Shown piece by piece: positions 5,533 to 21,305 of a stretch of 32,342 nucleotides of DNA. Position numbers and translations under genes: made by a program. Below the pieces are notes generated by a model, which did not search any database, was not told the DNA's origin, and saw nothing but the letters and a program-made list of their open reading frames with translations. Within the stretch, counting starts at the first letter, position 1, and each line of letters starts with the position of its first letter. The DNA is from Clostridia bacterium. Lineage in GTDB: Bacteria > Bacillota > Clostridia > Christensenellales > Aristaeellaceae. The DNA lies in NCBI GenBank assembly GCA_017552615.1, contig JAFZPI010000001.1, forward strand, positions 1-32,342. Direction: 5' to 3'.

Positions 5533-5573
5533 CGTTGTTCCTTCTCTCAGTAAATCGGTTTGAGATGAAATCG

Positions 5574-6833
5574 TTACCGGATCTGTCCGTCCCCGGTAAC
5601 AATATACTTGCTCGTGCAGAGCTCGCGCAGGCCCATCGGGCCGCGGGCATGGAGCTTCTGCGTCGAGATGCCCATCTCGCAGCCGAGGCCGAACTCCCCG
5701 CCGTCGGTGAAGCGGGTGGAGCAGTTGACATAGACCGCGGCGCTGTCCACTTCGCGCACGAAACGGGCGGCGGTCTCCTTGTCTTCGGTGACGATAGCGT
5801 CGGAGTGGTGGGTCGAGTGCGCACCGATGTGCCGGATGGCCTCCGCCGGACTGTCCACGATCTTCACGGCGAGGATATAGTCCAGGAACTCGGTGTCGAA
5901 ATCACTCGGCCCCGCCGGTGTCCCGGGAATGATCGCTGCCGCGTGGGGATCCAGCCGCAGCTCCACCGTCGGCTTGCCCGCTTTTTCGCGATTCTCCGTC
6001 AGCAGGGCCTTCAGCTTCGGCAGGAACTCCCCCGCCACCGCGCTGTGAACGAGCAGCACTTCCTCCGCGTTGCAGACGCTCGGGCGGCTGGTCTTAGCGT
6101 TCTCGACAATCTTCAGCGCTTTCTGCAGGTCGGCGGCAGCATCCACATAGACATGGCAGATGCCGGTGCCCGTCTGGATACAGGGCACGGTCGCGCGCTC
6201 CACACAGGCACGGATCAGGCCCGCCCCGCCCCGCGGGATCAGGCAGTCCACCAGGCCGTCGGCATGCATCAATTCGTCCGCACTGGCACGGCTGGTGTCG
6301 TCAATCAGGTTCACCAACCCCTTGGGCAGCCCGCAAACTGCCAGGCCCTTCCGCAGGGCCACCACGATGGCTGCTGCAGACCGGTGGGCTTCCTTGCCCC
6401 CGCGCAAGACGCACGCGCTGCCGGCCTTCAGGCACAAGGCCGCCGCGTCGGAGGTCACATTGGGCCGGGATTCATAGATGATGGCAATCACGCCCATCGG
6501 CGCGGTGACCTTCTCGATCACCAGCCCGTTAGGCCGCTCGATGTGGTCCAGCACCTTGCCCACGGGATCGTCCAACGGGATCAGCGCACGGATGCCCTCC
6601 GCCAGGCCGTGCACCCGCCCGGCGTCCAGGCTGAGTCGGTCGATCATGACCGGGTTGATGACGCCCCGGGCCGCGGCCACGTCCTCGGCATTGGCGGCAA
6701 GGATGGCCTCAGTATCAGCCTCAATGGCATCGGCCATCGCGGCGAGGGCTTTGTTCTTGGTTTCGGTCGTCAGGTTCGCCAGCGTCCCGCGGACGGCATT
6801 GGCTTCGGCGAGGATTTCGGATGTTGCGTGCAT
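5574..6833 (-). CDS. proA: Glutamate-5-semialdehyde dehydrogenase (gamma-glutamyl phosphate reductase)
   Basis: Second step of proline synthesis: NADPH-dependent reduction of gamma-glutamyl phosphate to glutamate-5-semialdehyde. The 419-residue length matches the family. Recognisable stretches are [25 protein letters not shown], the conserved [11 protein letters not shown], and the catalytic Cys (about residue 253) within [12 protein letters not shown]. The C-terminus has the usual [16 protein letters not shown]. The start is ATG at 6833, where an AAAGGAGG site sits 7-8 nt upstream; longer upstream reading is not needed. The proB partner is on the same strand but 2.7 kb upstream, separated by an LRR gene and a toxin-antitoxin pair, so the usual adjacent proBA operon is split. 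The leader contains a heptamer tandem repeat and a pair of hairpin elements. Confidence 0.97.
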
Positions 6834-6853
6834 GGGGGGACCTCCTTTGGGAG

Positions 6854-6881
6854 TGAGTAGTGAGTAGGGAGTAGAGAGTAG
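6854..6881. repeat. Four tandem heptamers in the proA leader
   Basis: Four consecutive units of the pattern NGAGTAG occur (TGAGTAG, TGAGTAG, GGAGTAG, AGAGTAG), preceded by a partial unit. They begin about 20 nt upstream of the proA start codon, just before its ribosome binding site. Read along the proA transcript the unit is CTACTCN. Confidence 0.8.
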
Positions 6882-6930
6882 TTTGTCGTGGTGCTGGTTG
6901 CTGCCTGGAAGCCGTTTCGGTTGAAGCCCC

Positions 6931-7064
6931 ACCACCGCTGCAGCGGTCCCCCTCCCCGGCAAGCCGGGGAGGAAAGAAAGGGCTGCCTGTACGGCGATCC
7001 GGGCTCGGACGCAGGCTTATTATCCTTTCTCTCCAGCTTGCTGGGGAGATGTCGCCGCAGCGAC
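6931..7064. repeat. Inverted hairpin-doublet element, copy A
   Basis: The left half has CCGCTGCAGCGG (6935-6946) and a 10-bp stem CCTCCCCGGC/GCCGGGGAGG (6951-6972). The right half has TCTCTCCAGC/GCTGGGGAGA (7028-7049, one G.T pair) and GTCGC-CGCA-GCGAC (7051-7064). The order of long and short hairpins is mirrored, as in copies B and C. The region 6834-7104 holds no gene that I can support. Confidence 0.7.
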
Positions 7065-7104
7065 AGAAGGGCAAACCTCGCAGTACTGAGTAGTTACAGT
7101 CAAA

Positions 7105-8805
7105 TCAGTTATTCAGCCAGTCAAGGGCATCCGGATAGGTATAGTTATACCCAAACTCCTTGCAGTACTCAGCAGCATAACTGTTACGTTCGACATAGAT
7201 GGTCATTGCGGTATTGCGCTGGAAATCAAGGGTATCGAAAGCACAATTCCCGATTTCGGTGACACTGCTGGGAATCGTGATGGACGTCAGGCTATCGCAC
7301 CCAGCGAATGCAAACATGCCAATGCTTGTTACCGTTTCCGGAATCACAATTTCCGTCAGATGGTCACAGCGGAAGAATGCACTGGCCCCGATGCTGGTGA
7401 TTCCTTCCTCAAGGACCACGCCCGTCAAGCTGCTCCTGATTTCCGGGCTCTGTGAATACCGCATATCTGCCGAAACAGTCGCAGAAAACAACCCAGCCTC
7501 AACGCTGCCGATACTGCCGGGAAGCACGATCTCAGTCAGGCCGGAGCATCCGGCAAACGCGGCTTCCCCGATTTCCGTCACACTGTCCGGGATGACGATC
7601 CCAGCCAGGTTCGTACAACCCTGAAATGCTCTTCTTCCAATCCGGGTCACATTTCCCGGAATGGAGATCGAAGTCAGGGAAGTACATTGCAAAAATACAT
7701 ATTCCCCAATGACTTCCAATGTATCTGGGATCGTAATACTTGTCAGGTTTGAGCACCCGGCAAATGCACCGAAACTGCCGCTTTGCAGATATGGATCATA
7801 ATTCTCATATCCAATCCTTTTGAGTCCTTGCGGAAGAATAATCGTCCTCAGTTCGGAACAGTTACAGAATGTTCCCTGTTCAATCGCAGTCAATCCATCC
7901 GGAAGCGAAACATACATCAGATCCCTGCAGCCCATAAACGCGCCTTCTCCGATGCTTGTCACACTGTTCGGAATGATCAGACTGACCAGCCCTGTGCCGC
8001 CAAATGCATCCTGACCAATACTGGTCACACCCTCCTGGATGATGACCTGGGTCAGGTTCTTGTGTTGATAGAACGTAGATCTGTCTATCGACTCGACACT
8101 TCCGGGAATAAACAAGCTCGATGGTCCGTGATAAACATTAATATACATATCATATATGCTGTCATACTTCATCCCTGTGCCAGGAAAAGCAGCGGAATCT
8201 ATGATCCGGATCCCATCCGGGACCGCATACTCCTCGCGCTCCAACCCGCCGGGATAACAGACCAGCCGCTTGTCCGCCTTGCTGAACAGCACCCCATCAA
8301 TGACCGCCAGGCCTTTGCAGTCCGGGGATACATGAATCTCTTTCAGATCAAAACAGTCGCTAAACGGATTTCTGCCAATCTCAACAACGCTGTCCGGGAG
8401 ATCGATTGTGACCAGGGCACACTCGTAAAACGCATCATTGCCGATACGGGTAACTCCCTCCGGAATAATTACTTCCGCCAGATTTTCGCACTTTGAAAAG
8501 GCACCAGCTCCGATGTCCGTAATCCCTTCCTGAATGATAACGCGCGTCAGTTCCCTGCACTTCGCAAATGCTCCATCCCCGATTGCGGTGACGGTTACGC
8601 GCGTTTCTCCGCTTTTCTTCGTCTTCTTCACAAGCTCTGCGGGGATTTCCAGTTCCTCTGTTTCCACGCCGACATAACCCGTGATTGTCGCGGTTCCATC
8701 GTCGTTGAGGGTGAATTCAAAGCCCCCCAGTTGGTCCGCCGCGGCGCAGGCAAAAAGCAGAACGCCCACAAACAAAGCGACCAAGAACAGATGAATGTGC
8801 TTCAC
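7105..8805 (-). CDS. Secreted BspA-type leucine-rich-repeat protein (LRR1)
   Basis: A 566-residue exported protein made mostly of 23-residue LRR_5/TpLRR repeats, about fifteen of them, with the signature IPxSVTxIGxxAFxxCxxLTxI. The N-terminal signal peptide includes LFLVALFVGVLLFACAAA. A short entry module follows (FEFTLNDDGTATITGY ... VTAIGDGAFAKC) that recurs in all four LRR proteins of this window. The C-terminus ends in the shared cap (NSYAAEYCKEFGYNYTYPD). The start chosen is GTG at 8805, because CAAAGGAGG lies 9-10 nt upstream; an ATG at 8847 has no such site. Proteins of this class are surface adhesins or binding scaffolds; no catalytic domain or cell-wall anchor is visible. It lies between the toxin-antitoxin pair and proA. 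No clear promoter was found. Confidence 0.88.
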   Translation of the reverse strand: MKHIHLFLVALFVGVLLFACAAADQLGGFEFTLNDDGTATITGYVGVETEELEIPAELVKKTKKSGETRVTVTAIGDGAFAKCRELTRVIIQEGITDIGAGAFSKCENLAEVIIPEGVTRIGNDAFYECALVTIDLPDSVVEIGRNPFSDCFDLKEIHVSPDCKGLAVIDGVLFSKADKRLVCYPGGLEREEYAVPDGIRIIDSAAFPGTGMKYDSIYDMYINVYHGPSSLFIPGSVESIDRSTFYQHKNLTQVIIQEGVTSIGQDAFGGTGLVSLIIPNSVTSIGEGAFMGCRDLMYVSLPDGLTAIEQGTFCNCSELRTIILPQGLKRIGYENYDPYLQSGSFGAFAGCSNLTSITIPDTLEVIGEYVFLQCTSLTSISIPGNVTRIGRRAFQGCTNLAGIVIPDSVTEIGEAAFAGCSGLTEIVLPGSIGSVEAGLFSATVSADMRYSQSPEIRSSLTGVVLEEGITSIGASAFFRCDHLTEIVIPETVTSIGMFAFAGCDSLTSITIPSSVTEIGNCAFDTLDFQRNTAMTIYVERNSYAAEYCKEFGYNYTYPDALDWLNN

Positions 8806-8901: not shown

Positions 8902-9192
8902 ATGGAGCTTGCAAAAGTCACCTGCAAGGGACAAATCACGCTTCCAGTAGCCATCCGGCGGGTTCTCGGCCTAAAAGAGGGCGACAAGGTCGCTTTTGTG
9001 GAACAGGGTGGCCAGTATTTGCTGATGAACAGCAATGCACTCTCTTTCCGCATGGATGACGAACTGGACAAGGCAGATGCCGCCGCACTGGCCACCGATG
9101 TGCGATACACTCTCGATGAAGTCGAACAGAGAATGAAGGAGAGGGTCAGGAGCTATGCAACCAGTCAGCGTCCGAATTCTACCGCTGTTTGA
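8902..9192 (+). CDS. AbrB/SpoVT-fold antitoxin
   Basis: A 96-residue protein with an N-terminal swapped-hairpin AbrB/MazE-type DNA-binding domain: KVTCKGQITLPVAIRRVLGLKEGDKVAF (residues 5-32, shown here only as its pattern KGQITLP...LGLKEGD). The C-terminal half is charged and helical and would be the toxin-binding segment. ATG at 8902 has AAGGAGG at 8888-8894. Its 3' end overlaps the toxin gene by 38 nt, as in translationally coupled toxin-antitoxin pairs. It most likely neutralises the toxin and represses its own promoter through the palindrome at 8864-8887. The pairing of an AbrB-type antitoxin with a RelE/ParE-type toxin recalls PrlF-YhaV. Confidence 0.88.
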   Translation: MELAKVTCKGQITLPVAIRRVLGLKEGDKVAFVEQGGQYLLMNSNALSFRMDDELDKADAAALATDVRYTLDEVEQRMKERVRSYATSQRPNSTAV

Positions 9193-9463
9193 AGCCGAGC
9201 TCGCTGAAATCCTTGACTACATTGGTCTTCATCTGCAAAACCCGGACGCCGCCATGCGGTTGGAAGAGGATGTCTTCGCGGCAATCCGGGAAAGAGCAGC
9301 CAGCGCGACTGCGTTCCAACCAATCCCTGTTATGCGGAAGCATTCAGAGGTTTATTATCCCATCCGGGTACGGAACTACACCATTGTGTATGTGGTCCTT
9401 GGCGATGTGATGGAAGTCCGACGCATCTTCTATACGCCCAGCGACTGGCAAAAGCGGCTGTAA
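9155..9463 (+). CDS. RelE/ParE-family toxin
   Basis: A 102-residue protein with the small alpha/beta RelE/ParE fold. It begins VRILPLFEAELAEILDYIG, typical of the N-terminal helix pair, and ends with the beta-sheet residues YPIRVRNYTIVYVVLGDVMEVRRIFYTPSDW. The conserved R-x-R-x-Y-x-I-x-Y pattern supports the family. RelE members cleave ribosome-bound mRNA and ParE members poison gyrase; the sequence does not decide between them. It overlaps the antitoxin by 38 nt, and ATG at 9155 has CAGGAG just upstream. A hairpin follows the stop. The pair sits on + within a minus-strand region, splitting proB from proA. Confidence 0.85.
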   Translation: MQPVSVRILPLFEAELAEILDYIGLHLQNPDAAMRLEEDVFAAIRERAASATAFQPIPVMRKHSEVYYPIRVRNYTIVYVVLGDVMEVRRIFYTPSDWQKRL

Positions 9464-10291: not shown

Positions 10292-12295
10292 TTAATTTCC
10301 GGTAACATTCAGGGTGTTCAGTTTTTCCTGCACATCCCCAAAGTAATACTCCACTTCCACGTCCGTCAGTTTCATGCGTTTCGCGAGCCAGGCGACAACT
10401 TTCTTCGGGCGGACACGGGCATAATACTTGGTGGCGTTGACATTCTTGCGCCAGTTGGTCATCTTTGGGGAACCCCAGCGCTCGATGTGCCGCGGGAGCA
10501 GGGGCTCGAGGGCGTTCTCCATCGCGAGGAAATGCTCCTCCACATAGGGCCAGAGGAAGCTCAGTTCCAGCACCTCCGCAAAGCGTTTCAGGAAGCGGTC
10601 GCGCATCTCCGGGACGGCCAGCAGGGCGTTCAGGGGCTCGTGCCGGAAAGCCGCGTATTTCGCGGAGACGGACTTGATATAGTTGTCCAAGGGCGTGGTG
10701 TCCGAGTCCGAACCGGAGCCGAAAGAGGCCTCCACATCGAAGAGGACATACTTCCATTTTCCGCCGGGCACCCGGTACATCCGCACGTTGGTGATGTCGT
10801 CGTTCCCCGAGATGATCTGGTAAGCCGAGAAGGTGAACAGGTTGTCCACGTCGATGCGGTCCGTGACATACTGCAGGTTTTCCGGGACATTCAGATCCTT
10901 GGTTTTGCAGAAACTGCACAGTTCCAGCCAATCCGCGTTGGACCCGTTCTGCACATAGTCATCGGAACCCGTCCGGGCCAGGAGATCAATGGCGTCCACG
11001 GTCTCCTCGTCGTCCAGATCAATGCCTTCCCACTGGGCCACGAAGTATTTGTTGATCTTTTCGCGGAGGTTGTAATGCCCCCAGTATTCCCCGTTGATGA
11101 ACACCACGATCACTCGCGCGTCCTGGTAACACAAGTCCAGCGGCGCGGCCAGGGAAGAGAACACGACATCCCGGAGGCGTTCGGAGAAAGCGTCGGAGTT
11201 CGTCGAGCGAAGAAGAAGGGACTTGTAGTGCGTGTAATCGCGGTTCGGGAACGGGTTATACTCAAAGTACTCGGGCCCGTATGCTTTGCGCGCATGGAGG
11301 GCAATGGACTTCTGCGGGTTCTGCCGGGCGCTGTGCCCGGAGGCGGTGAAAGACCCCATCTGGTTGATCCGGCAAACCCCATCCTCATCGAAATACTCAA
11401 TGTTCACCGGGTACTCATAAGGCTTATCATAGTTCGGGACAGAGCCGGTTCCCTTTACCAGGGCGCCGTTCTTTTTGCTGAACATATAGTCGCTGTCAGT
11501 GGTCAGGCATACCACCGCGACTGGGAGGTCCTCGCCGATCAGATAGGTCGCGCTGACGGGAGCCGACGGCACGGCGTCGTTTCGGAAAGCCGCCACGCGC
11601 AAGGGAGTCGTTTTCGTCAGGGTCAGCCCTTCGGCCGGAAAAACCTTGGATTTCTCGGTCGGGGTATCTCCATTGGTGGTGTAACGAAGGGTATCCCCCT
11701 CGGCACAGTGGGCGAAAACTGTGACCTTTCCGTCATAGAAGCCCCCGGCAGTATCGATGGCCGGCGTCTCCGCCCGAGAAGCATAGACCGTGTTTCCGTT
11801 GACTTTTCCGGGTGTCCCGGACGGGAAATAGCCGTATTCCGCCCCGCCCTTGGGCAGGCCCCAGCTGATGTTCCCGTACTGTTGGCCGAAAGTGATGTGC
11901 GCCTCGGTCACGCCATCCGGGTCGGTGAGCACCACGTCATCCCCGGAAGCCGAGAGTTTGAACGGCGCGTAAAACGTCGATCCTTTGCCCGGGGCCAGGG
12001 ATTCATCTCCGGTGCAGTAGATCAGCACATAGCCGTCCTTCTTGACCGTGGTTCCTGACGGGAAAACGAACTTGCCGGGTTTCTTCGGGCTGTCGGACAG
12101 CATCCATCCGGAGAGGTCAAGGGTCTTCCCGGATACATTGTGCAGTTCCACCCAGTCATAGGCGTGCGTATTGGTCCATGTGCCGTTGCTGGCCATGACT
12201 TCGTTGATAACGATACGCTCGCTTTCTGCCTGCGCGAAGGAAACAAAAAGCGCAAGCACCAGAACCGCAACGAGCAAGAAATAGATTCGTTTCAC
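10292..12295 (-). CDS. Secreted CotH-like protein with lamin-tail and chitobiase-type domains
   Basis: A 667-residue exported protein with a signal peptide (KRIYFLLVAVLVLALFVSF, cleavage near AQA). Domains in order: a lamin-tail domain at about 25-150 (IVINEVMASNGTW, WVELHNVSGKTLDLSGWMLSD); a chitobiase/beta-hexosaminidase C-terminal-type beta-sandwich at about 175-245 (TLRYTTNGDTPTEKSKVF); and a CotH domain at about 250-600 (VIVVFINGEYWGHYNLREKI, IISGNDDITNVRMYR, YVLFDVEASFGS). CotH of Bacillus spores is an atypical protein kinase; whether this homologue is active is not shown. GTG at 12295 is preferred because GAGGTGA lies 6 nt upstream; GTG at 12304 is the alternative. It lies 21 nt after LRR2 and 13 nt before proB, in the kinase operon. 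Confidence 0.88.
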   Translation of the reverse strand: MKRIYFLLVAVLVLALFVSFAQAESERIVINEVMASNGTWTNTHAYDWVELHNVSGKTLDLSGWMLSDSPKKPGKFVFPSGTTVKKDGYVLIYCTGDESLAPGKGSTFYAPFKLSASGDDVVLTDPDGVTEAHITFGQQYGNISWGLPKGGAEYGYFPSGTPGKVNGNTVYASRAETPAIDTAGGFYDGKVTVFAHCAEGDTLRYTTNGDTPTEKSKVFPAEGLTLTKTTPLRVAAFRNDAVPSAPVSATYLIGEDLPVAVVCLTTDSDYMFSKKNGALVKGTGSVPNYDKPYEYPVNIEYFDEDGVCRINQMGSFTASGHSARQNPQKSIALHARKAYGPEYFEYNPFPNRDYTHYKSLLLRSTNSDAFSERLRDVVFSSLAAPLDLCYQDARVIVVFINGEYWGHYNLREKINKYFVAQWEGIDLDDEETVDAIDLLARTGSDDYVQNGSNADWLELCSFCKTKDLNVPENLQYVTDRIDVDNLFTFSAYQIISGNDDITNVRMYRVPGGKWKYVLFDVEASFGSGSDSDTTPLDNYIKSVSAKYAAFRHEPLNALLAVPEMRDRFLKRFAEVLELSFLWPYVEEHFLAMENALEPLLPRHIERWGSPKMTNWRKNVNATKYYARVRPKKVVAWLAKRMKLTDVEVEYYFGDVQEKLNTLNVTGN

Positions 12296-12316
12296 AGGGT
12301 TCACCTCGCTTCACCG

Positions 12317-13135
12317 TTACGGCGTCGGGGTCGGGGCTGGAATCAACTCGTTCTTGAGGCAATATGCCTCGGCGGGGCTTCCCGCAGGCACATCCAATAC
12401 AAGGTTAGGGCACTCGAAGAACACATTCTCCCCGATGGTCAGGTCACCTCCGGGAAGCGCCAGCGCGCCCAGCGCCATACACTTCCGGAAAGCGCCGTCC
12501 CCGATCTCCAGCAGGCCTTCGGGCAGATTCACGGTTTCCAGACGGACACAGGAGGCAAAGGCGTCCTTTCCGATCCGGGTGAGGCTCTCCGGAAGCTTCG
12601 CTTCGGTCAACGCCGTGCAGTCAAAGAATGCCATATCACCGATGGTCTCAACGCCTTCCGGGATCTCGATTTCGGTCAGACTGCTGCAAAACCGGAACGC
12701 ACGCTCGCCGATCTTGTTCAGTCCGGAGGATAAATGTACGGTCTGCAGCGCGGTACATTCCTCAAAGGCGCCTTCGCCGAGAACCGTCACGCCGGCCGGC
12801 AGTGTGATTTCTGTCAGCTTTTCACTGCGGGCAAACGCGCCTTCCCCGATTGCGGTCACCGGCGCGCCGCCGAGCATGGCCGGGACCACCGCGTGTGCGC
12901 CGTTCCCATGGTATTCCGTGATGGTCACGGTGCGGGTGACGGCATCGGTGTCGGGGTCTTTTTCCTCGATCGTCACATAGGTGAAATCACCGTGGGCCGT
13001 CGGCGTCGAGCGCGGTGCGTTCGGTCCGCTGACACCTTCGAGAAGCAGTCCGGGCCACACGAACAGCATGATCGCCGCCACGACCACCGCGGTGATCGCA
13101 ACCAGCACCATCAGGCTCTGTTTCTGATTCTTCAT
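12317..13135 (-). CDS. Membrane-anchored BspA-type LRR protein (LRR2)
   Basis: A 272-residue protein with a short cytoplasmic start (MKNQKQS), one membrane segment at about residues 8-32 and no obvious cleavage site, then an extracellular region. The shared entry module is present in variant form (FTYVTIEEKDPDT ... VTAIGEGAFARS), followed by about seven LRR_5 repeats (LTEITLPAGVTVLGEGAFEE) and the cap GSPAEAYCLKN. The tail ends in PAPTPTP. The start is ATG at 13135 with GGAGGG 8 nt upstream. It begins 19 nt downstream of prkC and precedes the CotH-like gene by 21 nt, so all are almost certainly cotranscribed. A role as a surface partner of the kinase is inference from position and topology. 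Confidence 0.85.
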   Translation of the reverse strand: MKNQKQSLMVLVAITAVVVAAIMLFVWPGLLLEGVSGPNAPRSTPTAHGDFTYVTIEEKDPDTDAVTRTVTITEYHGNGAHAVVPAMLGGAPVTAIGEGAFARSEKLTEITLPAGVTVLGEGAFEECTALQTVHLSSGLNKIGERAFRFCSSLTEIEIPEGVETIGDMAFFDCTALTEAKLPESLTRIGKDAFASCVRLETVNLPEGLLEIGDGAFRKCMALGALALPGGDLTIGENVFFECPNLVLDVPAGSPAEAYCLKNELIPAPTPTP

Positions 13136-13154
13136 GGTTTTTCCCTCCGCCATG

Positions 13155-15035
13155 TCACTGCAGCACGACCGTCCGCGTGTTCTCCTCGCTGAGGGCATTG
13201 TTCAGGTAAACCCGCATCAGGGTTTCTCCCTCGATCCAGCTCACCAGCTCGATCTCCTGTTCCCGGTCCGCATCGGCGTCGAAAGTGCCTTCATAAGCCA
13301 GCACCTCTCCGCCGCCGATCTCCAGCGTCACGCGGACCGTCTGGCTTCCGTCGGACTGCGGCAGCGACAGGGTCACCAAAGTCCGGCTGAGCTCCGAAGG
13401 CCGTACGTAGATCTTTACCCGGACTTCAGCGTTGATCCGCATGGGGGTCCCCGGCGGATCGCTCTGCCAGGCTACCCGGTTGCGTCCGTCCGCGTCCTGG
13501 TTCTCTTCCGTCTCAACCTTTTCAGACAAGCGGAGGTTAACTTCCGCGAGCTTTTCCCGCGCCTCAAGCAGGGTCATGCCTGTCAGGTCGGGGACTTCCG
13601 CCCGGCCGCCCGAGATCGTCAGCGCGACCGTCCGGTTGTCGGGAACATCGGCCCCGGCCGCCGGGGACTGGCGGAGTACCTGGTCCACCGGTTCGTCGCT
13701 GATTTCGACCGAGAAGACCGAATAGTTCAAATCATCCTGCGCCAGTCGGTCCCTGGCCTCATTGACGGTGTAGCCCGTCACGTTGGGCACACGGCTGGCC
13801 TTCTGCGTGTCGCGCCCCTTGGAGACGGTTACGGTGATCGTGTCGCCCTTGTTTGCCGAGCTGTCCGCCGCCGGCATCTGCTGGAAGATCGTGCCGGCCG
13901 GGCGCTCGTCATTCGTGGCTTCCTCCACGCGCAGCTTCAGTTCCAGACTCCGGGCCCGGGCCTCGGCGTTTTCGCGGGTTAGGCCGATCAGGTCCGGCAC
14001 CGTCACCCGGGTCTGTGCGCTGTTGAAGATCGAATACACCCCGTAACCGAGCGCGCCGACCACCAGCACAACTACAAGCGCTGTGAGGATCCACCACAGC
14101 CAGTTCGGGCGGCGACGGGGCTTCTGGCTTCCGGGTTCGCCTCCCGCTGTTCCGACGGAGAGCTTATCCTGCTGCGTCCCGTTCTGCGGAAGATGATTTT
14201 GCATGACCTCCATCCGGCCTTCGATCGCGGCGCGCAGATCGGCGGCCATCTCCCGGGCGCTCTGGTAGCGAAGGTCAGGGTTCTTGCTCATGGCCACCAT
14301 GCACACGTGGGCCACAGCCGGGGGCACATCCGGCGCGTACGTCGCGATGGGTTCCGGCTGCCCGCGCAGGTGCAGCATGGCAATCGAAACCTGGTTGTCC
14401 GCGTCAAACGGCACACGGCCGGTCAGCATCTCATAGAGCACCACGCCGACGGAATAGATGTCGGAGCGCTCGTCCGCCTCGCCGCCGCTGGCCTGCTCCG
14501 GGCTGAAATAATGCACGGAGCCGACCACGGTGTCGCTCTGGCTCAGGGTCCGGGTATCGGCGATACGGGCAATGCCGAAGTCCGCCACCTTGATCAGCCC
14601 GTCCTCATTGACAAGAATGTTCTGGGGCTTGATGTCCCGGTGGACAATGCCGTTCTCATGGGCGTGCTGCAAAGCCGAGAGTATGCGAATGGTCACCGCC
14701 ACCGCGATCTGCGCGGGAAGGCGGCCCTTCTCCTGGATCACCTGCTTGAGCGTCTGGCCCGGGACATACTCCATCACCAGATAGCGGTTGTCCCCGTCCA
14801 TGCCCACGTCCAGAAGATTGACAATGTTATGGTGGGTCATCTTCGAGGCTGCCTGGGCCTCCCGCTGGAAGCGGCTGACATATTCGGCGTTCTGGGCCAG
14901 TTCCGGCCGCAGGAGTTTCACGGCCACAAAATGGCCTGTACGGCGGTCCTCCGCCTTGTACACAATGGCCATACCGCCGGAACCGATCTGCTCCAGCAGC
15001 CGATAGCGCCCCGCCAGGATGCGCTGTTCGCTCAT
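13155..15035 (-). CDS. prkC: PASTA-domain serine/threonine protein kinase (PrkC/PknB type)
   Basis: A membrane Hanks-type kinase that senses cell-wall fragments or muropeptides in relatives and phosphorylates cytoplasmic proteins. The kinase domain spans about 10-270, with the glycine loop GSGGMA (18-23), Lys40, the catalytic loop HRDIKPQN (132-139) and DFG (152-154). The activation segment contains SQSDTVVGSVHYFSPEQ. A single membrane helix lies at about 312-337 (WLWWILTALVVVLVV). Three extracellular PASTA domains follow, at about 343-407, 413-476 and 478-544, and then a terminal beta-rich region of about 80 residues. ATG at 15035 overlaps the prpC stop by 4 nt (ATGA), with GGAGGTGA upstream. 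The canonical downstream neighbour rsgA is missing; LRR2 follows instead. Confidence 0.97.
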   Translation of the reverse strand: MSEQRILAGRYRLLEQIGSGGMAIVYKAEDRRTGHFVAVKLLRPELAQNAEYVSRFQREAQAASKMTHHNIVNLLDVGMDGDNRYLVMEYVPGQTLKQVIQEKGRLPAQIAVAVTIRILSALQHAHENGIVHRDIKPQNILVNEDGLIKVADFGIARIADTRTLSQSDTVVGSVHYFSPEQASGGEADERSDIYSVGVVLYEMLTGRVPFDADNQVSIAMLHLRGQPEPIATYAPDVPPAVAHVCMVAMSKNPDLRYQSAREMAADLRAAIEGRMEVMQNHLPQNGTQQDKLSVGTAGGEPGSQKPRRRPNWLWWILTALVVVLVVGALGYGVYSIFNSAQTRVTVPDLIGLTRENAEARARSLELKLRVEEATNDERPAGTIFQQMPAADSSANKGDTITVTVSKGRDTQKASRVPNVTGYTVNEARDRLAQDDLNYSVFSVEISDEPVDQVLRQSPAAGADVPDNRTVALTISGGRAEVPDLTGMTLLEAREKLAEVNLRLSEKVETEENQDADGRNRVAWQSDPPGTPMRINAEVRVKIYVRPSELSRTLVTLSLPQSDGSQTVRVTLEIGGGEVLAYEGTFDADADREQEIELVSWIEGETLMRVYLNNALSEENTRTVVLQ

Positions 15036-15847
15036 GCCTTCACCTCCCCGCTGCCGATCCGCACCAGCACAATGCTGATATTATCATGACCGCCGGCCGC
15101 CAGGGCCGCGTCCATCAGCTGCTGGGCTTTTTCGGTGTCCGGGGCATCCCCGCCGAGAATCGCCGCCATGTCCTCATCGCTGACCATGCCGTGCAGACCG
15201 TCGGAGCAGAGGAGCCACAGGTCCCCGTCCACGCGAGGGAAGGTCATCAGGTCTGTTTCCACGTCCGCATCCGTGCCCACCGCGCGGGTGATCACGTTCC
15301 GCATCGGATGGACCGCGGCCGCCTCGGCGGTCAGCACACCGGCCCGGACCATCTCCATGACCATGGAATGATCGTCGGTGACCTGGGTGAGCGTCCCGCT
15401 GGAAAACCGATAGCAGCGGCTGTCGCCCACATGCGCCAGAAAAAGCTCCTTGTCCCCGATCCACATCACGCACAGGGTCGTACCCATGCCATGGACGGTT
15501 ACGTCCTCATTCGAGCGCTCGAAAACCGCCGCATTGGCGTGTTCTACGCCCTGCAGCAGGATATCCCGGTCGGGTGTCTTGCCCCGCAGGTATTCGCAAA
15601 GGGTATCCCGGCAGAGCGACGAAGCCGTCTCGCCGCCGAGATGTCCGCCCATGCCGTCCGCCACGCCTGCCAGGCGGCCTTCGTGGATCAGGCTGTCCTG
15701 GTTGGAGCGGCGAACCATGCCGATATCGGTCAGCGCAACCACAGTAAATCCCTGCGCTTCCGTCTCCTGCTGCTTTTCTGCCCGTTCGCGCATGCTGTCA
15801 AACCCCTCAATGCGGTCCCGGCTTTTCCGGTTCATGTGGAATTTCAT
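15032..15847 (-). CDS. prpC: PP2C-type serine/threonine phosphatase (PrpC/Stp)
   Basis: The 271-residue metal-dependent phosphatase that reverses PrkC phosphorylation. The PPM/PP2C motifs are intact: RRSNQD (Asp51), GVADGMGGH (Asp64), AHVGDSRCYR, CSDGLHGMV (Asp216) and GGHDNISIVLV (Asp255). An N-terminal stretch of about 30 charged residues precedes the domain. ATG at 15847 has GGAGGG 7 nt upstream; the in-frame TTG at 15865 is less likely. It overlaps prkC by 4 nt, as is typical for the pair. It starts 74 nt downstream of LRR3. No convincing promoter is visible in that gap, only a small dyad GATCG/CGATC. Confidence 0.96.
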   Translation of the reverse strand: MKFHMNRKSRDRIEGFDSMRERAEKQQETEAQGFTVVALTDIGMVRRSNQDSLIHEGRLAGVADGMGGHLGGETASSLCRDTLCEYLRGKTPDRDILLQGVEHANAAVFERSNEDVTVHGMGTTLCVMWIGDKELFLAHVGDSRCYRFSSGTLTQVTDDHSMVMEMVRAGVLTAEAAAVHPMRNVITRAVGTDADVETDLMTFPRVDGDLWLLCSDGLHGMVSDEDMAAILGGDAPDTEKAQQLMDAALAAGGHDNISIVLVRIGSGEVKA

Positions 15848-15921
15848 GGGAATCCCTCCGGTCAATTGACTTGGCTAGTCATATTGGATCGTCTGTCGAT
15901 CATAATCAATCAAGAATACTT

Positions 15922-16965
15922 CTACTGCATCCTGAACCCATACTGCGAGCAATACGTCTCCCCGAAACTTCCCGACACCACCGTAAAGATGATGTCCATG
16001 TTGGGTTTGTATTCAACAAGGCTGTAAGTATGGAATGCGGCATCACCGATACGGGTCAGGCTGGCAGGGAGGACAACCGAGCAAAGATTGCTGCAGTTCG
16101 TGAAAGCCAGATTCCCGATAGTTTCGGTACCCTCGGCGATTTCCGCATACACCAAACCGCTGCAGTTGAAGAACGCACTGTTCCCGATGCTCCGCACTCC
16201 GGACGGAATATAGACCGTGGCCAGGCTGCGGCAGCCCATGAACGCTTCGTTCCCGATGGAGGTCACACTTTTCGGAATGCTGACCTCCGTCAGGTTCGTA
16301 CAGAAGGAGAAGGCGGATGTGCCGATGACGGTTACGCCTTCGGGTATGCTCACTTTGGTGAGGCTTTTGCAGCTTGCAAAGAGCGATTCCGGGATCTCTG
16401 TCAGTGCTTTGGGAAGCGTCACATGGGCCAGCGCTTCACAGTTCGAAAAGGCCGAGGCTCCGATCAATGTCACGCTGTCAGGAATTGTGACCTCCGTCAG
16501 GCTGTTACACCGGAAGAAAGCCGAATCGCCGATCGCGGTCAGTCCATCCGGCAGGGTGATGGCGGTGAGTTCCGTGCAGCCGGAGAAGGTAGAATTGCCG
16601 ATGGTTCTCAGCCCGTCCGGAAGGATAACGGAGGTAAGCTTCGAGCGCTCCTTGAACACGCCGTCCCCTAAGGCGGTGACTGCATGGCCGTCAACTTCGG
16701 ACGGAACCGTTACCTGCGTGTTTCCGCTCAGTTCCCAGCGGAGGGATGCCGTCCCGTCCTCCAGAAGGTTATACTGCCATGTCCCGGTCTTGTCCGTCAG
16801 CCGGACCTCGTCTTCCCGCGTCTGCGGTGGCTCGCCTGCCTCCTGTTTCTCGACACTGAACGCCCGCACCAACAGGAACACAACCAGTGCGATGGCGAGG
16901 ACAAGGGCGATCTTTTTGATCCACCACCAGGGACCGCGGACAGTCGGGTTTTCCTGTTCAGTCAT
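15922..16965 (-). CDS. Membrane-anchored BspA-type LRR protein (LRR3)
   Basis: A 347-residue protein with a short cytoplasmic N-terminus (MTEQENPTVRGPWWWIKK), one membrane helix at about residues 18-37 and no cleavage site, then an extracellular LRR domain. The shared entry module reads WQYNLLEDGTASLRW ... AVTALGDGVFKE. About ten LRR_5 repeats follow (LTEVTIPDSVTLIGASAFSN) and end in the cap SGSFGETYCSQYGF. The second ATG of a double start is chosen (16965), 6 nt behind GGAGG; the first (16968) is too close to that site. The gene overlaps the 3' end of rlmN by 8 nt, which points to translational coupling. It lies directly before prpC-prkC, and its topology matches LRR2 on the other side of the pair. 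Confidence 0.87.
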   Translation of the reverse strand: MTEQENPTVRGPWWWIKKIALVLAIALVVFLLVRAFSVEKQEAGEPPQTREDEVRLTDKTGTWQYNLLEDGTASLRWELSGNTQVTVPSEVDGHAVTALGDGVFKERSKLTSVILPDGLRTIGNSTFSGCTELTAITLPDGLTAIGDSAFFRCNSLTEVTIPDSVTLIGASAFSNCEALAHVTLPKALTEIPESLFASCKSLTKVSIPEGVTVIGTSAFSFCTNLTEVSIPKSVTSIGNEAFMGCRSLATVYIPSGVRSIGNSAFFNCSGLVYAEIAEGTETIGNLAFTNCSNLCSVVLPASLTRIGDAAFHTYSLVEYKPNMDIIFTVVSGSFGETYCSQYGFRMQ

Positions 16966-18028
16966 CATGATCCTCCGTTTCACTCGTCCGGTTGATCTCG
17001 CGCCGCCGCAGCTGCCCGCAAGCACCCTCGATATCGTCCCCCATCTCACGCCGTCTCGTCGCCGAGATGCGGTGCTCCGTGAGGGTATCCAGGAAGCGCT
17101 TTACCTGCGCTTCCGAAACCCCCTTCAGTCCGCGCTCGGGAACATCGTTCAGGGGGATGAGATTTACATGGCACTGCAGGTGGCGCAGGCGGGAGGCCAG
17201 CTCAACGGCCTGCGCGGGATCCGCGTTGACGCCGTCCACCAGCGCGTACTCGAAGATTACCCGGCGGCCGGTCTTCTCGACATAGTTCCGGCTGGCGGCC
17301 AGGACCTGGTCGATCGGCCAGCGGTTGGCAACCGGCATCAGCTTTTTCCGGATCCCGTCGTTCGGCGCGTGAAGACTGACCGACAATGTCACCGGCAGGC
17401 CTTCCTCGGCAAAGCGATTCATCCGGTCCACCAGGCCACAGGTGGAAAGGCTCACCCCGCGGAGGGAAAGATTTACACCCTCCGGCTCCCGCAGGAGGCG
17501 CAGAAAGCGCACGGTCTCGTCATAATTGTCCAGCGGTTCGCCGCTGCCCATCAGGACGACATTGTGCACCTTCGTGTCCGGTTCGCCACTCTCAACCAGA
17601 AAGCGGTTGGCGCAGAGAATCTCGCCGAGCATCTCCCCGGCTGTAAGGTTCCGGACACAACCCTCGAGGGTAGAAGCACAGAACGCGCAGCCCATGCGGC
17701 AGCCCACCTGTGTCGAGATGCAGAGCGTGCACCCATGGTGATAGCGCATCAGGACGCCTTCGACACAGTTGCCGTCAAGGAGGGCAAAGAGGAACTTCAC
17801 CGTGCCGTCAAGGGCAGAAACCCGCGTCGTGCGGATGCTCACCGGCTGTGCGATAGCCTCTTCCTTCAGGTTCTCCCGCAGTGATGCGGGCAGATTGGAC
17901 ATCCCGTCAAAGTCCACACCCCGGTGAATCCACTGGAAGATCTGCTTCCCGCGGAAACCGGGCAGCCCCTGGTCTTTACACCAATCCGTCAACTCAGCCG
18001 GATTCATCCCGGTCAGTTCGGTTTTCAA
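16958..18028 (-). CDS. rlmN: Dual-specificity 23S rRNA/tRNA adenine-C2 methyltransferase
   Basis: A radical-SAM enzyme that methylates A2503 of 23S rRNA and A37 of certain tRNAs. The 4Fe-4S motif C-x3-C-x2-C is at Cys110, Cys114 and Cys117. The two mechanistic cysteines are also visible: Cys103 in HGCTLCISTQVG, and Cys337 in the C-terminal GACGQL. At 356 residues the length is normal. The start is TTG at 18028, 7 nt behind AGGAGG; the next Met (18007) has no site at proper distance. In Bacillota this gene usually sits directly between rsmB and prpC. Here a 118-bp inverted repeat element separates it from rsmB, and LRR3 lies between it and prpC. Confidence 0.96.
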   Translation of the reverse strand: MKTELTGMNPAELTDWCKDQGLPGFRGKQIFQWIHRGVDFDGMSNLPASLRENLKEEAIAQPVSIRTTRVSALDGTVKFLFALLDGNCVEGVLMRYHHGCTLCISTQVGCRMGCAFCASTLEGCVRNLTAGEMLGEILCANRFLVESGEPDTKVHNVVLMGSGEPLDNYDETVRFLRLLREPEGVNLSLRGVSLSTCGLVDRMNRFAEEGLPVTLSVSLHAPNDGIRKKLMPVANRWPIDQVLAASRNYVEKTGRRVIFEYALVDGVNADPAQAVELASRLRHLQCHVNLIPLNDVPERGLKGVSEAQVKRFLDTLTEHRISATRRREMGDDIEGACGQLRRREINRTSETEDHDD

Positions 18029-18177: not shown

Positions 18178-19941
18178 TCACCGCTTCCTCTTCATCCTGC
18201 ACACATAGAATCCGCCCACACCATCGCGGTGTGCCATCAGCTGCAGACCCAGGGTTTCATGCTGGCGCAGAGCTTCCGGAATCGTGACGGGCAGCTTCTC
18301 CGGCTCAAACTCCGGGTGCCGCTCGAGGAATGCCTTGACCTGGTCCTCGTTCTCCGCTTTCAGCAGGGAACAGGTGGCATAGACCAGCACGCCGCCGATC
18401 TTGACCGACGGGCAAACCGCGTCCAGCAGTTCCGCCTGGGTGCGGATCAGCGCATCGACGTTTTCTTCCTTCAGGCGGAGCTTGATGTCCGGCTTCTCCG
18501 CCATGTCCCCGGTGCCGGAACAGGGCGCGTCCAGCAGCACCGCGTCGAAGGTCATGTCGAGGTCTTCGCGGTAGACCGAAGCGTCCCGGTGGATGGGCCG
18601 GACGTTCTCCAGATGCAGGCGCTTGGCCTGAGCCGTGATCAGATCGACCCGGTGCTCGTGCTTGTCCCATGCCTGGACGCGGCCGCCGCCATTCAGGAGT
18701 TCGGCGATATAGGCCGTCTTGCCGCCCGGCGCGGCGCAGCAGTCCAGCACTTTCCACCCGGGACGCACGCCCAGCGCCAGCACGGCACACTGCGAGCCCT
18801 CGCTCTGGATCGAGTACATGCCGCCCTGCCAGTCCGCGTCGGCAGTGATATCGATCATGCCCTTCACGCGCACAGCGTGGGGCATCATGGCAGGCTCGTG
18901 CTCCCAGACCTTTTTCTGCAGAAGCGTCTCAAACCCCGCGTCGTCCAGGCGCATAAGATTGGGCCGCAGGATGATCCCGCCACGCTTGTCCCGCCAGCGC
19001 AGGAGCTGTTCGGCGGTCTCCTCGCCCCAGTTAGCCTGCAGTCGCCGGATCAGCCATTCGGGCGTACTGGTTTCCACCGACAGCGCCTTCACCAGGTCTT
19101 CCGCCGGATCAGGCCATTGGATCCCCTCGCCGTCACGCTGGCGGATCAGGTTTCGGAGAATTCCGTTGCACACGCCGACGAGCCCTTCCAGGCCGATCTC
19201 GCGGCAAAGGCGGACAGCGGTGTCGGTGGCGGCATTGTCCGGGACACGGTAGCCCAGCAGCAGCTGGCACGCACCCAGCCGCAGGACATTCACCAGCCGG
19301 ATATCGGTATCCGGCCTCGCCATGACCTGGTGCAGCGCCCAGTCAAGTTTGGCGATGTTGTCCAGTGTATCGTAAACCAGCCGGGCCGCGAAGCGTCGGT
19401 CCGCCGCGGAGAGCGTGCAGCCATGGAGCTTCTCGTCCAGTGCCAGCGACGCATACGCGCCGTTCTCGGTGACCTTGCGGATCACGTCGAGTGCCAGCCG
19501 CCGCGCCGGCATGCCGTCGGTCGCGCCGGGACGGACCGCATTCGGCGCCTGTCCAGGCCGATTCTGGGCTTTTCCTCCACCCACCGCACGGTCGAACGAT
19601 CTCTGCGCGTACCCGCTTCCACTTTTGCCGTGGTATTCGCGATATTTGTAACCACCATTCCCACCTTGCGGCTTCGCCGAAGACGTTCTGATCCCCTCTT
19701 CGCCACTCTGGTGCTTAAACTCCGAAGGTTTGGCGCTGTTGTTCCCACCGGAAGCCTCGTTTTTGCGCCATTCCTGTCTGTCGCTCCCACCGGATGCTGT
19801 ATTTTCACCATTGCGGCGGCTCTTCCAGGTGCCGTGGTGGATCAGCGCCCCACCCTGGGGCCGGGAACCGGATTGTCTGTGTTCGCCGACAGGGCCAAAG
19901 TCGTTGCGGCGGGGTTTGTTGGTATTGCGATCGTAACTCAT
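18178..19941 (-). CDS. rsmB: 16S rRNA m5C967 methyltransferase with long disordered N-terminal extension
   Basis: An S-adenosylmethionine-dependent methyltransferase of 16S rRNA C967. From about residue 145 it has the NusB-like RNA-binding domain (ARRLALDVIRKV, RRFAARLVYDTL), then the Rossmann methyltransferase domain. The latter contains VLDCCAAPGGKT (about 400), the catalytic-Cys motif DAPCSGTGD (about 470) and the second Cys in YATCSLL (about 522). At 587 residues it is about 140 longer than the usual roughly 440. The extra N-terminus is hydrophilic and rich in Gly, Ser, Asn, Arg and Lys, and probably disordered. ATG at 19941 has AAAGGAG 8 nt upstream, and no good site precedes the domain start at about 19512, so the extension appears real. 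It begins 29 nt after LRR4. Confidence 0.93.
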   Translation of the reverse strand: MSYDRNTNKPRRNDFGPVGEHRQSGSRPQGGALIHHGTWKSRRNGENTASGGSDRQEWRKNEASGGNNSAKPSEFKHQSGEEGIRTSSAKPQGGNGGYKYREYHGKSGSGYAQRSFDRAVGGGKAQNRPGQAPNAVRPGATDGMPARRLALDVIRKVTENGAYASLALDEKLHGCTLSAADRRFAARLVYDTLDNIAKLDWALHQVMARPDTDIRLVNVLRLGACQLLLGYRVPDNAATDTAVRLCREIGLEGLVGVCNGILRNLIRQRDGEGIQWPDPAEDLVKALSVETSTPEWLIRRLQANWGEETAEQLLRWRDKRGGIILRPNLMRLDDAGFETLLQKKVWEHEPAMMPHAVRVKGMIDITADADWQGGMYSIQSEGSQCAVLALGVRPGWKVLDCCAAPGGKTAYIAELLNGGGRVQAWDKHEHRVDLITAQAKRLHLENVRPIHRDASVYREDLDMTFDAVLLDAPCSGTGDMAEKPDIKLRLKEENVDALIRTQAELLDAVCPSVKIGGVLVYATCSLLKAENEDQVKAFLERHPEFEPEKLPVTIPEALRQHETLGLQLMAHRDGVGGFYVCRMKRKR

Positions 19942-19970: not shown

Positions 19971-21305
19971 TCAGTCGGCATAGGTGTAGGGAATGTTGTT
20001 GTCAATGGCATATTGTTCGGCAACACTGCCCTTGGAAACAGTCAGCGTCAGTTTTGAACAGCCTTCAAAGGCATCTTGCCCAATGGCAGTGACAGACGGC
20101 AGGATGGTGACGCTTGTCAGTCCATACCGATTGCAAAATGCTTTTTCTCCGATTTCAGTCACGCTTTCCGGAATGGTAATTTTGCTGACCAGCAGTTGGC
20201 TTTTAGTCGCACCCGACGCATTAAAACCAAATGCATTATCCCCAATCGCCACCACCGGATAACCTTCCAGTTCCGCCGGAATTTCCACCGTTTTTGCCTG
20301 GCCGTGATAGCGGGTGATCGTCAGCGCCCCGTCCTCGAAGACTTCATAAGAATAGTCCCCGCTGGTTCCTTCTACGGCGCTGAACACCTCGCCGGGCGTA
20401 TCCGGATAGGTGTAGAGGATGTGGTTTCTCCGGCAATACTGCGCCAGATCGCTGTTGTGTGCAATCGTGAGGATGAAGTCCTCCCTATTGGGAAAAGCAT
20501 TCTCTCCAATCTCGGTAACATTTTCGGGCAAGGTAACGCCGGTCAGTTTCCCGCAATCGCTGAATGCGCTCCTGCCAATGCTGGTCACCCCTTCCGGAAT
20601 GGTGATCTGCGTAAGACTTTTGCATTTGGAAAACGCTGCTTCCCCTATACTCGTAAGGCTGTTCGGAAGAACAACACTAGTCAGATTCTCACAACAGCTA
20701 AAGGCTTCATAGGCGATGTCAGTTACCCCTTCAGGGATGATGATCTGCGTCAAGCCTCCACAATTGTAGAACGCCAGGTTCCCAATGCTTGTGAGGCTGC
20801 TCGGAAGGATGATTTCCGTCAATGCGCCGCAATGGGCAAATGCACCGGATCCAATCCTGGTTACGCTCTCCGGAATCACGACTTCTTCGAGACATTTACA
20901 GCCTGAGAACGCATAAGCCTCGATTTCGTTCACACCTTCTTCGAGGATCACGGATTTCAGTAAATCGCATCTCGTGAAGGCACCTTCACCCATTGCCATG
21001 TCCCTGTTTAACCTTCCTGCACCAAATTCGCTTACCCCGACAATGCACACACTTCCCGGGATGGTCACTTGCACAAGATCGTCACATTCCTTAAACGCTT
21101 CGCTCCCGATGGCAGTCACCGGATGTCCGTCCAGTTCCGTGGGAAGCACGAGCTCGGCCGTGTCTCCTGAATACTTTATAATCGTGACGGTTCCGTCATC
21201 GTTCAGGGAATACTCATAGTCCCCGGACGTCTCTGCCATCACACAGCCGCAAATGCAAAGCATGACGAGGATGATCAAAGCCGCAAGCAGAAATCTGGTT
21301 CTCAT
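19971..21305 (-). CDS. Secreted BspA-type LRR protein with duplicated module (LRR4)
   Basis: A 444-residue exported protein. The signal peptide is MRTRFLLAALIILVMLCICG, with probable cleavage after VMA. A first complete unit has the entry module (YEYSLNDDGTVTIIKY ... VTAIGSEAFKEC), about eight LRR_5 repeats and the cap SDLAQYCRRNHILYTYPD. A second, shorter unit repeats the same plan: entry module YSYEVFEDGALTITRY, about three repeats, and cap GSVAEQYAIDNNIPYTYAD. It thus looks like an in-frame fusion of two related proteins. ATG at 21305 has AAGGAGG upstream. It separates fmt from rsmB, with a hairpin-doublet element between it and fmt. Confidence 0.88.
   Translation of the reverse strand: MRTRFLLAALIILVMLCICGCVMAETSGDYEYSLNDDGTVTIIKYSGDTAELVLPTELDGHPVTAIGSEAFKECDDLVQVTIPGSVCIVGVSEFGAGRLNRDMAMGEGAFTRCDLLKSVILEEGVNEIEAYAFSGCKCLEEVVIPESVTRIGSGAFAHCGALTEIILPSSLTSIGNLAFYNCGGLTQIIIPEGVTDIAYEAFSCCENLTSVVLPNSLTSIGEAAFSKCKSLTQITIPEGVTSIGRSAFSDCGKLTGVTLPENVTEIGENAFPNREDFILTIAHNSDLAQYCRRNHILYTYPDTPGEVFSAVEGTSGDYSYEVFEDGALTITRYHGQAKTVEIPAELEGYPVVAIGDNAFGFNASGATKSQLLVSKITIPESVTEIGEKAFCNRYGLTSVTILPSVTAIGQDAFEGCSKLTLTVSKGSVAEQYAIDNNIPYTYAD

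What the first reader, a model, noticed from the sequence alone, without database searches (positions are those of the whole stretch)
12317..16965. Two membrane-anchored LRR proteins bracket the PASTA kinase/phosphatase pair
Seen: LRR3 overlaps the upstream gene rlmN and precedes prpC; prpC and prkC overlap by 4 nt; LRR2 starts 19 nt after prkC. LRR2 and LRR3 both have one uncleaved N-terminal membrane helix with an extracellular LRR domain, the same topology as PrkC. The LRR proteins further away (LRR1, LRR4) instead have signal peptides. Known: PrkC-type kinases sense wall fragments through PASTA domains. Inference: the LRR ectodomains may act as co-receptors or substrates of the kinase, a bacterial split version of an LRR receptor kinase.
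Basis: partly seen in the sequence, partly recalled or inferred. Interest (0 to 1): 0.72.

Follow-up and report, generated by a model that had tools for sequence, protein, structure and literature searches.

The report
Membrane-anchored LRR proteins flank a kinase
An uncultured gut Clostridia genome has two surface proteins, tied to the membrane, encoded on either side of its cell-wall-sensing kinase; the relatives examined lack this arrangement, but some carry similar repeat domains fused directly onto other kinases, so a sensing partnership is plausible though unproven.

Summary
The layout is real: on the minus strand rsmB–rlmN–LRR(up)–prpC–prkC–LRR(dn)–cotH, at operon-like spacing, both LRR proteins with an apparently uncleaved N-terminal anchor.

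It is not conserved in the loci read. Of 124 unique related loci with rlmN and prpC placed, none has an LRR gene between them; of 128 with downstream DNA, none has one directly after prkC. In this genome the rsgA–rpe–CE2-esterase block has moved to another contig and LRR(dn) fills its slot. A secreted LRR4 sits between fmt and rsmB. So LRR genes entered this operon, and not only at the kinase.

Two results still favour a kinase link. Of this genome's 20 detected LRR_5 genes only these two look anchored; 18 have signal peptides. A genus sample gave 0 anchored of 22 readable. The same bacterial family also encodes single-chain kinase/LRR_5 proteins: 11 in 7 genomes, 9 with a membrane helix between the domains, and 7 label changes on the kinase tree.

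My reading: lineage-specific accessory ectodomains for the PASTA kinase, about 40%; an equally serious rival is coincidental insertion of surface proteins. No interaction was tested.

The parts
15922..16968 (-).
   Evidence: LRR_5 E 1.2e-67; helix 14-38 and solenoid in AlphaFold model, mean pLDDT 82.7; overlaps rlmN by 8-11 nt
12317..13135 (-).
   Evidence: LRR_5 E 1.4e-55; helix 2-32 and solenoid, mean pLDDT 85.7; ATG 19 nt after prkC
13155..15035 (-). prkC: PASTA Ser/Thr kinase, 626 aa; glycine loop, Lys, HRD, DFG and activation-loop motifs present
   Evidence: NF033483 558.9 bits, cutoff 450; Pkinase and 3 PASTA stretches; motif positions
15032..15847 (-). prpC: PP2C phosphatase, Stp1/IreP family
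   Evidence: NF033484 246.3 bits, cutoff 230
16958..18028 (-). rlmN
   Evidence: TIGR00048 356.4 bits, cutoff 290
18178..19941 (-). rsmB
   Evidence: PRK14902 373.8 bits, cutoff 319
10292..12304 (-). cotH: CotH-kinase/lamin-tail-domain protein with an N-terminal leader, 12 nt after LRR(dn)
   Evidence: CotH E 5e-34, LTD E 1.9e-16; relative 81% identical over 426 aa behind prkC-rsgA-rpe-CE2 in G008
19971..21305 (-). LRR4: signal-peptide LRR_5 protein between fmt and rsmB of the same operon
   Evidence: LRR_5 E 2.1e-98; signal peptide; a signal-peptide LRR_5 gene in the same junction in L165

Best explanation
SHOWN: the two genes are intact reading frames at operon spacing on both sides of prpC-prkC and encode LRR_5 solenoids behind a membrane helix, predicted to lie in the same orientation as PrkC (N inside, C outside). 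Among the loci read they are a lineage-specific addition to an old housekeeping operon, and LRR(dn) fills the slot vacated by rsgA-rpe-CE2. INFERRED: made with the kinase and held at the same membrane face, they act as accessory ectodomains. They would bind a surface or dietary polymer or a cell-surface protein, meet PrkC laterally through TM helices or the LRR and PASTA domains, and bias its dimerisation and activation, so that kinase output reports an adhesion-type cue besides wall fragments, with PrpC resetting it. That is the trans version of the kinase-TM-LRR_5 fusions found in the same family.
For: Spacing and ribosome sites. Only these 2 of the 20 LRR_5 ORFs found in the genome are anchored; 18 have signal peptides. 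In a sample of 20 genus regions, 27 LRR ORFs: 17 signal peptides, 4 leaderless, 1 unclear, 3 starting within repeats, 2 cut at the 5' end; 0 anchored of the 22 with a readable start. LRR(up) and LRR(dn) are not evidently sister copies: 40.6% identical over 180 aa of repeats, each matching LRR4 as well or better, and no match between their N-terminal parts, so the anchors may have arisen twice. Eleven one-chain kinase/LRR_5 proteins in 7 genomes and 6 genera, 9 with a TM between the two domains. The LRR label needs 7 changes on the kinase tree. One fusion also has PG_binding_1 domains (L214). No minus-strand promoter-like or terminator-like site falls between these genes (weak, since the scan found fewer promoters than expected by chance).
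Against: Not seen in any of 129 unique related loci, the same genus included (nearest PrkC 57% identical). LRR(dn) sits at a rearrangement scar. A secreted LRR4 sits elsewhere in the same operon, so LRR insertion is not kinase-specific. No sign of enrichment near prkC: LRR ORFs in 5 of 129 unique loci. No PASTA domain was listed on the fused kinases, no fusion was found in the own genome, and LRR(up)/LRR(dn) resemble secreted LRRs as much as they do the fusions. No LRR-only gene lies beside the kinases in the 20 regions. Interaction untested.
Confidence: 0.4

Rival explanations
1. Coincidental insertion. LRR_5 surface-protein genes are numerous and change place in these genomes; several landed in the priA-def-fmt-rsmB-rlmN-prpC-prkC stretch, where they gain steady expression. 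They are ordinary surface or adhesion proteins with no role in kinase signalling.
For: No conservation. LRR4 between fmt and rsmB, and a signal-peptide LRR_5 gene in that same junction in another genus (L165). rsgA-rpe-CE2 displaced to contig C32 while cotH stayed. 23-160 LRR_5 domain matches in each of the 12 genus genomes.
Against: Does not explain why the only two anchored LRR_5 proteins among 20 are the two flanking the kinase, nor the absence of anchored ones among 22 readable in the genus sample.
Confidence: 0.42
2. Substrates: PrkC phosphorylates the cytoplasmic tails of the two LRR proteins to control their surface activity.
For: Adjacent genes and same membrane; LRR(up) tail has two Thr.
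Against: Tails of about 13-19 and about 7 residues; the single Ser of LRR(dn) abuts the membrane. No phosphosite data.
Confidence: 0.08
3. The LRR proteins belong with the neighbouring CotH-type kinase (surface-protein phosphorylation or surface assembly), and PrkC is a bystander.
For: cotH starts 12 nt after LRR(dn); CotH of Bacillus subtilis phosphorylates a coat protein (PMC7821199, start of abstract seen in a listing).
Against: cotH lies near prkC without an LRR neighbour in G008; LRR(up) is on the far side of prpC-prkC.
Confidence: 0.08

Closest known systems
PASTA-kinase operon of Firmicutes (rsmB-rlmN-prpC-prkC-rsgA-rpe)
   Same: PrkC, PrpC, rlmN and rsmB present in the usual order
   Different: LRR_5 gene between rlmN and prpC, another directly after prkC, rsgA-rpe moved away
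BspA-type (LRR_5) surface proteins
   Same: Repeat type and solenoid; solved relatives 4gt6, 4fs7, 6mlx
   Different: The other 18 found in this genome are exported by signal peptide; these two keep a membrane anchor
Single-chain kinase-TM-LRR_5 proteins of the same bacterial family (found here)
   Same: Ser/Thr kinase domain, one predicted membrane pass, LRR_5 on the other side
   Different: One polypeptide, no PASTA domain listed; in the window the LRRs are separate chains next to a PASTA kinase
Plant LRR receptor kinases with LRR co-receptors
   Same: Extracellular LRR ectodomain proposed to feed a Ser/Thr kinase
   Different: Different LRR class and reversed order (kinase first in the bacterial fusions); no shown complex (plant features recalled and from PMC3268121 passages)
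Reported LRR-bearing bacterial kinases: a Pseudomonas aeruginosa STYK (PMC1262709) and Vibrio STPKLRR (PMC10237653); passages seen
   Same: Ser/Thr kinase and LRR in one bacterial protein
   Different: STPKLRR is a secreted effector with the LRR before the kinase; neither set of passages describes a transmembrane LRR_5 receptor

Membership tests
PASTA kinase/PP2C pair (PrkC/PrpC) | Stk1-family kinase with PASTA repeats next to a Stp1-type phosphatase | tested here: met
   NF033483 and NF033484 over cutoff, 4-nt overlap
Canonical rlmN-prpC-prkC-rsgA operon | Uninterrupted gene order rlmN-prpC-prkC-rsgA | tested here: not met
   LRR genes at both junctions; rsgA-rpe on contig C32; most relatives read keep the order
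BspA-type LRR_5 proteins | PF13306 repeats over the curated cutoff | tested here: met
   226.1 and 187.1 bits against 27.7
LRR receptor kinase (one chain) | Kinase and LRR ectodomain on one polypeptide | tested here: not met
   Separate genes in the window; both domains in one protein in 11 cases in relatives
LRR co-receptor of a kinase | Conserved linkage to the kinase gene | tested here: not met
   0 of 124 loci at rlmN/prpC and 0 of 128 directly after prkC
LRR co-receptor of a kinase | Physical complex or effect on kinase activity | not testable with these tools
   No complex prediction offered; needs experiment

The most novel reading that the evidence does not exclude
This bacterial family builds LRR receptor kinases in two ways: by repeated fusion of LRR_5 ectodomains to Hanks kinases in one chain and, in this genome, as a split complex of a PASTA kinase with two separately anchored LRR ectodomains that widen what the wall-sensing kinase can detect.
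Probability: 0.33. Interest if true: 0.72.

Novelty: new variant of a known kind. Interest (0 to 1): 0.45.

Why it matters
PASTA kinases control wall growth and division in Gram-positive bacteria, and the input described for them is mainly peptidoglycan fragments (PMC6213207, passages). A trans-acting LRR ectodomain would be a new kind of input. Independently of that, the one-chain kinase-TM-LRR_5 proteins show that gut Clostridia have repeatedly joined LRR domains to Ser/Thr kinases, a design usually discussed as eukaryotic; a survey of 884 bacterial genomes named LRR receptor kinases outside land plants only in eukaryotes (PMC3268121, passages and section 5), although it looked for the plant-like architecture.

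Tried and rejected
Descent of LRR(up)/LRR(dn) from a broken kinase-LRR fusion: LRR(up) does align through the TM to the L092 fusion (residues 11-281; N-terminal part E 2e-5 with composition correction off), but several secreted LRRs match as well or better, so not supported. Foreign origin by GC3: LRR(dn) 0.74 and LRR(up) 0.72 rank 3rd and 5th of 20 LRR genes, at the low end of the conserved operon genes (0.72-0.84); uninformative. Enrichment of LRR genes around prkC: LRR ORFs in 5 of 129 unique loci, no sign of it, though no formal expectation was computed by a call. Promoter/terminator scan: 1 promoter-like site against 3.2 expected, 13 terminator-like against 11.1; no information. Literature: no paper in the library holds BspA, leucine-rich repeat and PASTA together (0 papers). 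Searches listed at most 15 papers each of up to 2,713 that held the terms; I saw titles and starts of abstracts, and passages of four papers; none reported a bacterial kinase-TM-LRR_5 receptor. Subscription journals are mostly not held, preprints of bioRxiv not at all. Sampling limits: of the 133 family genomes outside the genus with a PrkC match, 67 loci were fetched, mostly the best-scoring ones; the rest were not read. The kinase sample for the fusion count is biased: 30 loci, 20 regions chosen mostly for long reading frames, and the genus hits; 53 rows went into the tree after dropping rows cut at the 3' end, short ones and duplicates. Two rows labelled 'other' there (L209, L211) are PASTA kinases. 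The L094 row is on a long branch and its place is unsure; 6 of 500 label shuffles needed as few changes as the real labels (mean 10.2), so the LRR label is somewhat clustered.
Full report
Setting. The window is contig C19 (1-32342) of a metagenome-assembled genome of 2.03 Mb in 49 contigs, 72.8% complete. Its relatives by PrkC are mostly uncultured gut and rumen Clostridia; two records are titled Christensenellaceae or Christensenella.

Observation. Minus-strand order: priA, def, fmt, LRR4, rsmB, rlmN, LRR(up), prpC, prkC, LRR(dn), cotH (def and fmt named from recall and their place, priA). LRR(up) overlaps rlmN by 8-11 nt, prpC and prkC overlap by 4 nt, LRR(dn) starts 19 nt after prkC, and cotH starts 12 nt after LRR(dn). 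Both LRR proteins score far above the Pfam LRR_5 cutoff. AlphaFold models from the single sequences show an N-terminal helix, a linker and a solenoid. The closest solved structures of LRR(up) are LRR_5-type proteins such as 4gt6, 4fs7 and 6mlx. PrkC keeps the kinase motifs looked for.

Conservation. I collected 156 loci with a PrkC match: 80 from named genome contigs, 9 from the same genus and 67 from the family. After removing duplicates 129 remained; 12 of these are distant Firmicutes. In 124 both rlmN and prpC could be placed: none has an LRR between them, and in 117 they lie at most 150 nt apart. The seven with larger distances are L020, L037, L046, L048, L065, L068 and L082; in L037 def, fmt and rsmB lie between. 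Of 128 with enough downstream DNA, the automatic rule finds rsgA directly after prkC in 125; in L004 it is also there on inspection; L020 and L082 lack it. None has an LRR directly after prkC. In what I could read the bracket is unique to this genome. The nearest PrkC is only 57% identical, so conservation at species level cannot be excluded.

How it arose. In relative G008 the order is prkC-rsgA-rpe-CE2 esterase-cotH, with cotH 81% identical to the window's over 426 aa. In the window's genome rsgA, rpe and the CE2 gene lie together on contig C32; the two CE2 proteins are 81% identical over 346 aa. So a block that sits between prkC and cotH in G008 is elsewhere here, and LRR(dn) is in its place. 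LRR4 is a separate gene between fmt and rsmB; an LRR_5 gene with a signal peptide occupies the same junction in L165, of another genus. In three of the nine genus loci an LRR lies farther downstream of prkC, behind rsgA, each with a signal-peptide-like start: L081 and L086 over the Pfam cutoff, L084 just under it. LRR genes thus occur in this region without being tied to the kinase.

Topology test. The genome holds 43 LRR_5 matches in 20 ORFs. By hydropathy and the A-x-A rule 18 have cleavable signal peptides, and only LRR(up) and LRR(dn) have anchors without such a site. If two anchors were dealt at random among 20 genes, both would flank the kinase once in 190. In 20 genus regions, chosen for short LRR frames, 27 LRR ORFs were found: 17 with signal peptides, 4 without a leader, 1 unclear (L232:2008-3048), 3 that start within repeats and 2 cut at the 5' end; none of the 22 with a readable start is anchored. 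Topology was judged by a simple script and by eye, not by a trained predictor.

One-chain LRR kinases. Searches of the genus showed reading frames holding both kinase and LRR_5. Reading them and widening to 150 family genomes gave 11 proteins with Pkinase and LRR_5, each confirmed by Pfam: L092 and L093 (two) in G002; L094 in G001; L213 and L217 in G112; L214 (two) in G152; L218 in G143; L228 in G133; L229 in G105. In 9 a predicted membrane helix lies between kinase and LRR; in the two of L093 none was found. On a 53-row kinase tree (11 with LRR) the LRR label needs 7 changes, also when only well supported branches are counted; gains and losses cannot be told apart. In the own genome only 2 kinase matches were found: PrkC, and one whose gene overlaps a PP2C gene; neither is fused to LRR_5.

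Weighing. Lack of conservation, the rearrangement scar and LRR4 speak for coincidence. The topological exclusiveness, and the habit of this family of joining LRR_5 to kinases across the membrane, speak for a functional tie. I put the accessory-ectodomain reading at 0.40 and coincidence at 0.42. They are practically equal; I file the former as the mechanism to test because it alone accounts for the anchors. The substrate version is unlikely given the short tails.

Known and new. PASTA kinases and their neighbouring phosphatases are well described (PMC6213207, passages). LRR-bearing bacterial kinases have been mentioned: one in Pseudomonas aeruginosa (PMC1262709, passages) and the Vibrio effector STPKLRR (PMC10237653, passages). 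I found no report of kinase-TM-LRR_5 receptors or of LRR genes flanking prkC in searches, which cover an open-licence library and of which I saw only the listed papers. Hence: new variant of a known kind.

Noticed in passing
L092:3701-9061; L094:3217-6543; L213, L214, L217, L218, L228, L229: One-chain Ser/Thr kinase-TM-LRR_5 proteins in 6 genera of the family; the LRR label needs 7 changes on the kinase tree.
   Followed up: yes
L214:4081-7608: Kinase-TM protein whose far part holds LRR_5, DUF285 and two PG_binding_1 stretches: LRR and peptidoglycan-binding modules on one kinase.
   Followed up: partly
L093:2923-5235 and 5294-7249: Two neighbouring kinase-LRR_5 proteins without a detectable membrane helix, so the LRRs may be cytoplasmic.
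   Followed up: no
G005:C2:215781-236581 (L096, L097): Five Hanks kinases within 21 kb with odd C-termini, one with S1 RNA-binding domains and DUF6273; no PrkC match at E 1e-20 in this genome (89% complete).
   Followed up: no
window 19971-21305 and L165:524-2116: Signal-peptide LRR_5 gene in the fmt/rsmB junction in two different genera.
   Followed up: partly
L098:706-3236 (own contig C10): A second kinase in the own genome, with a C-terminal membrane helix, its gene overlapping a PP2C_2 gene by 4 nt.
   Followed up: partly
window 8902-9463 (+): MazE/AbrB-type antitoxin gene overlapping a ParE-family toxin gene, between LRR1 and cotH: a likely type II toxin-antitoxin pair.
   Followed up: partly
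L099:7044-9742 and L083:1373-4328: rsgA-rpe-CE2 block: next to prkC in G008, on another contig in the window's genome; a clean case of operon break-up.
   Followed up: yes
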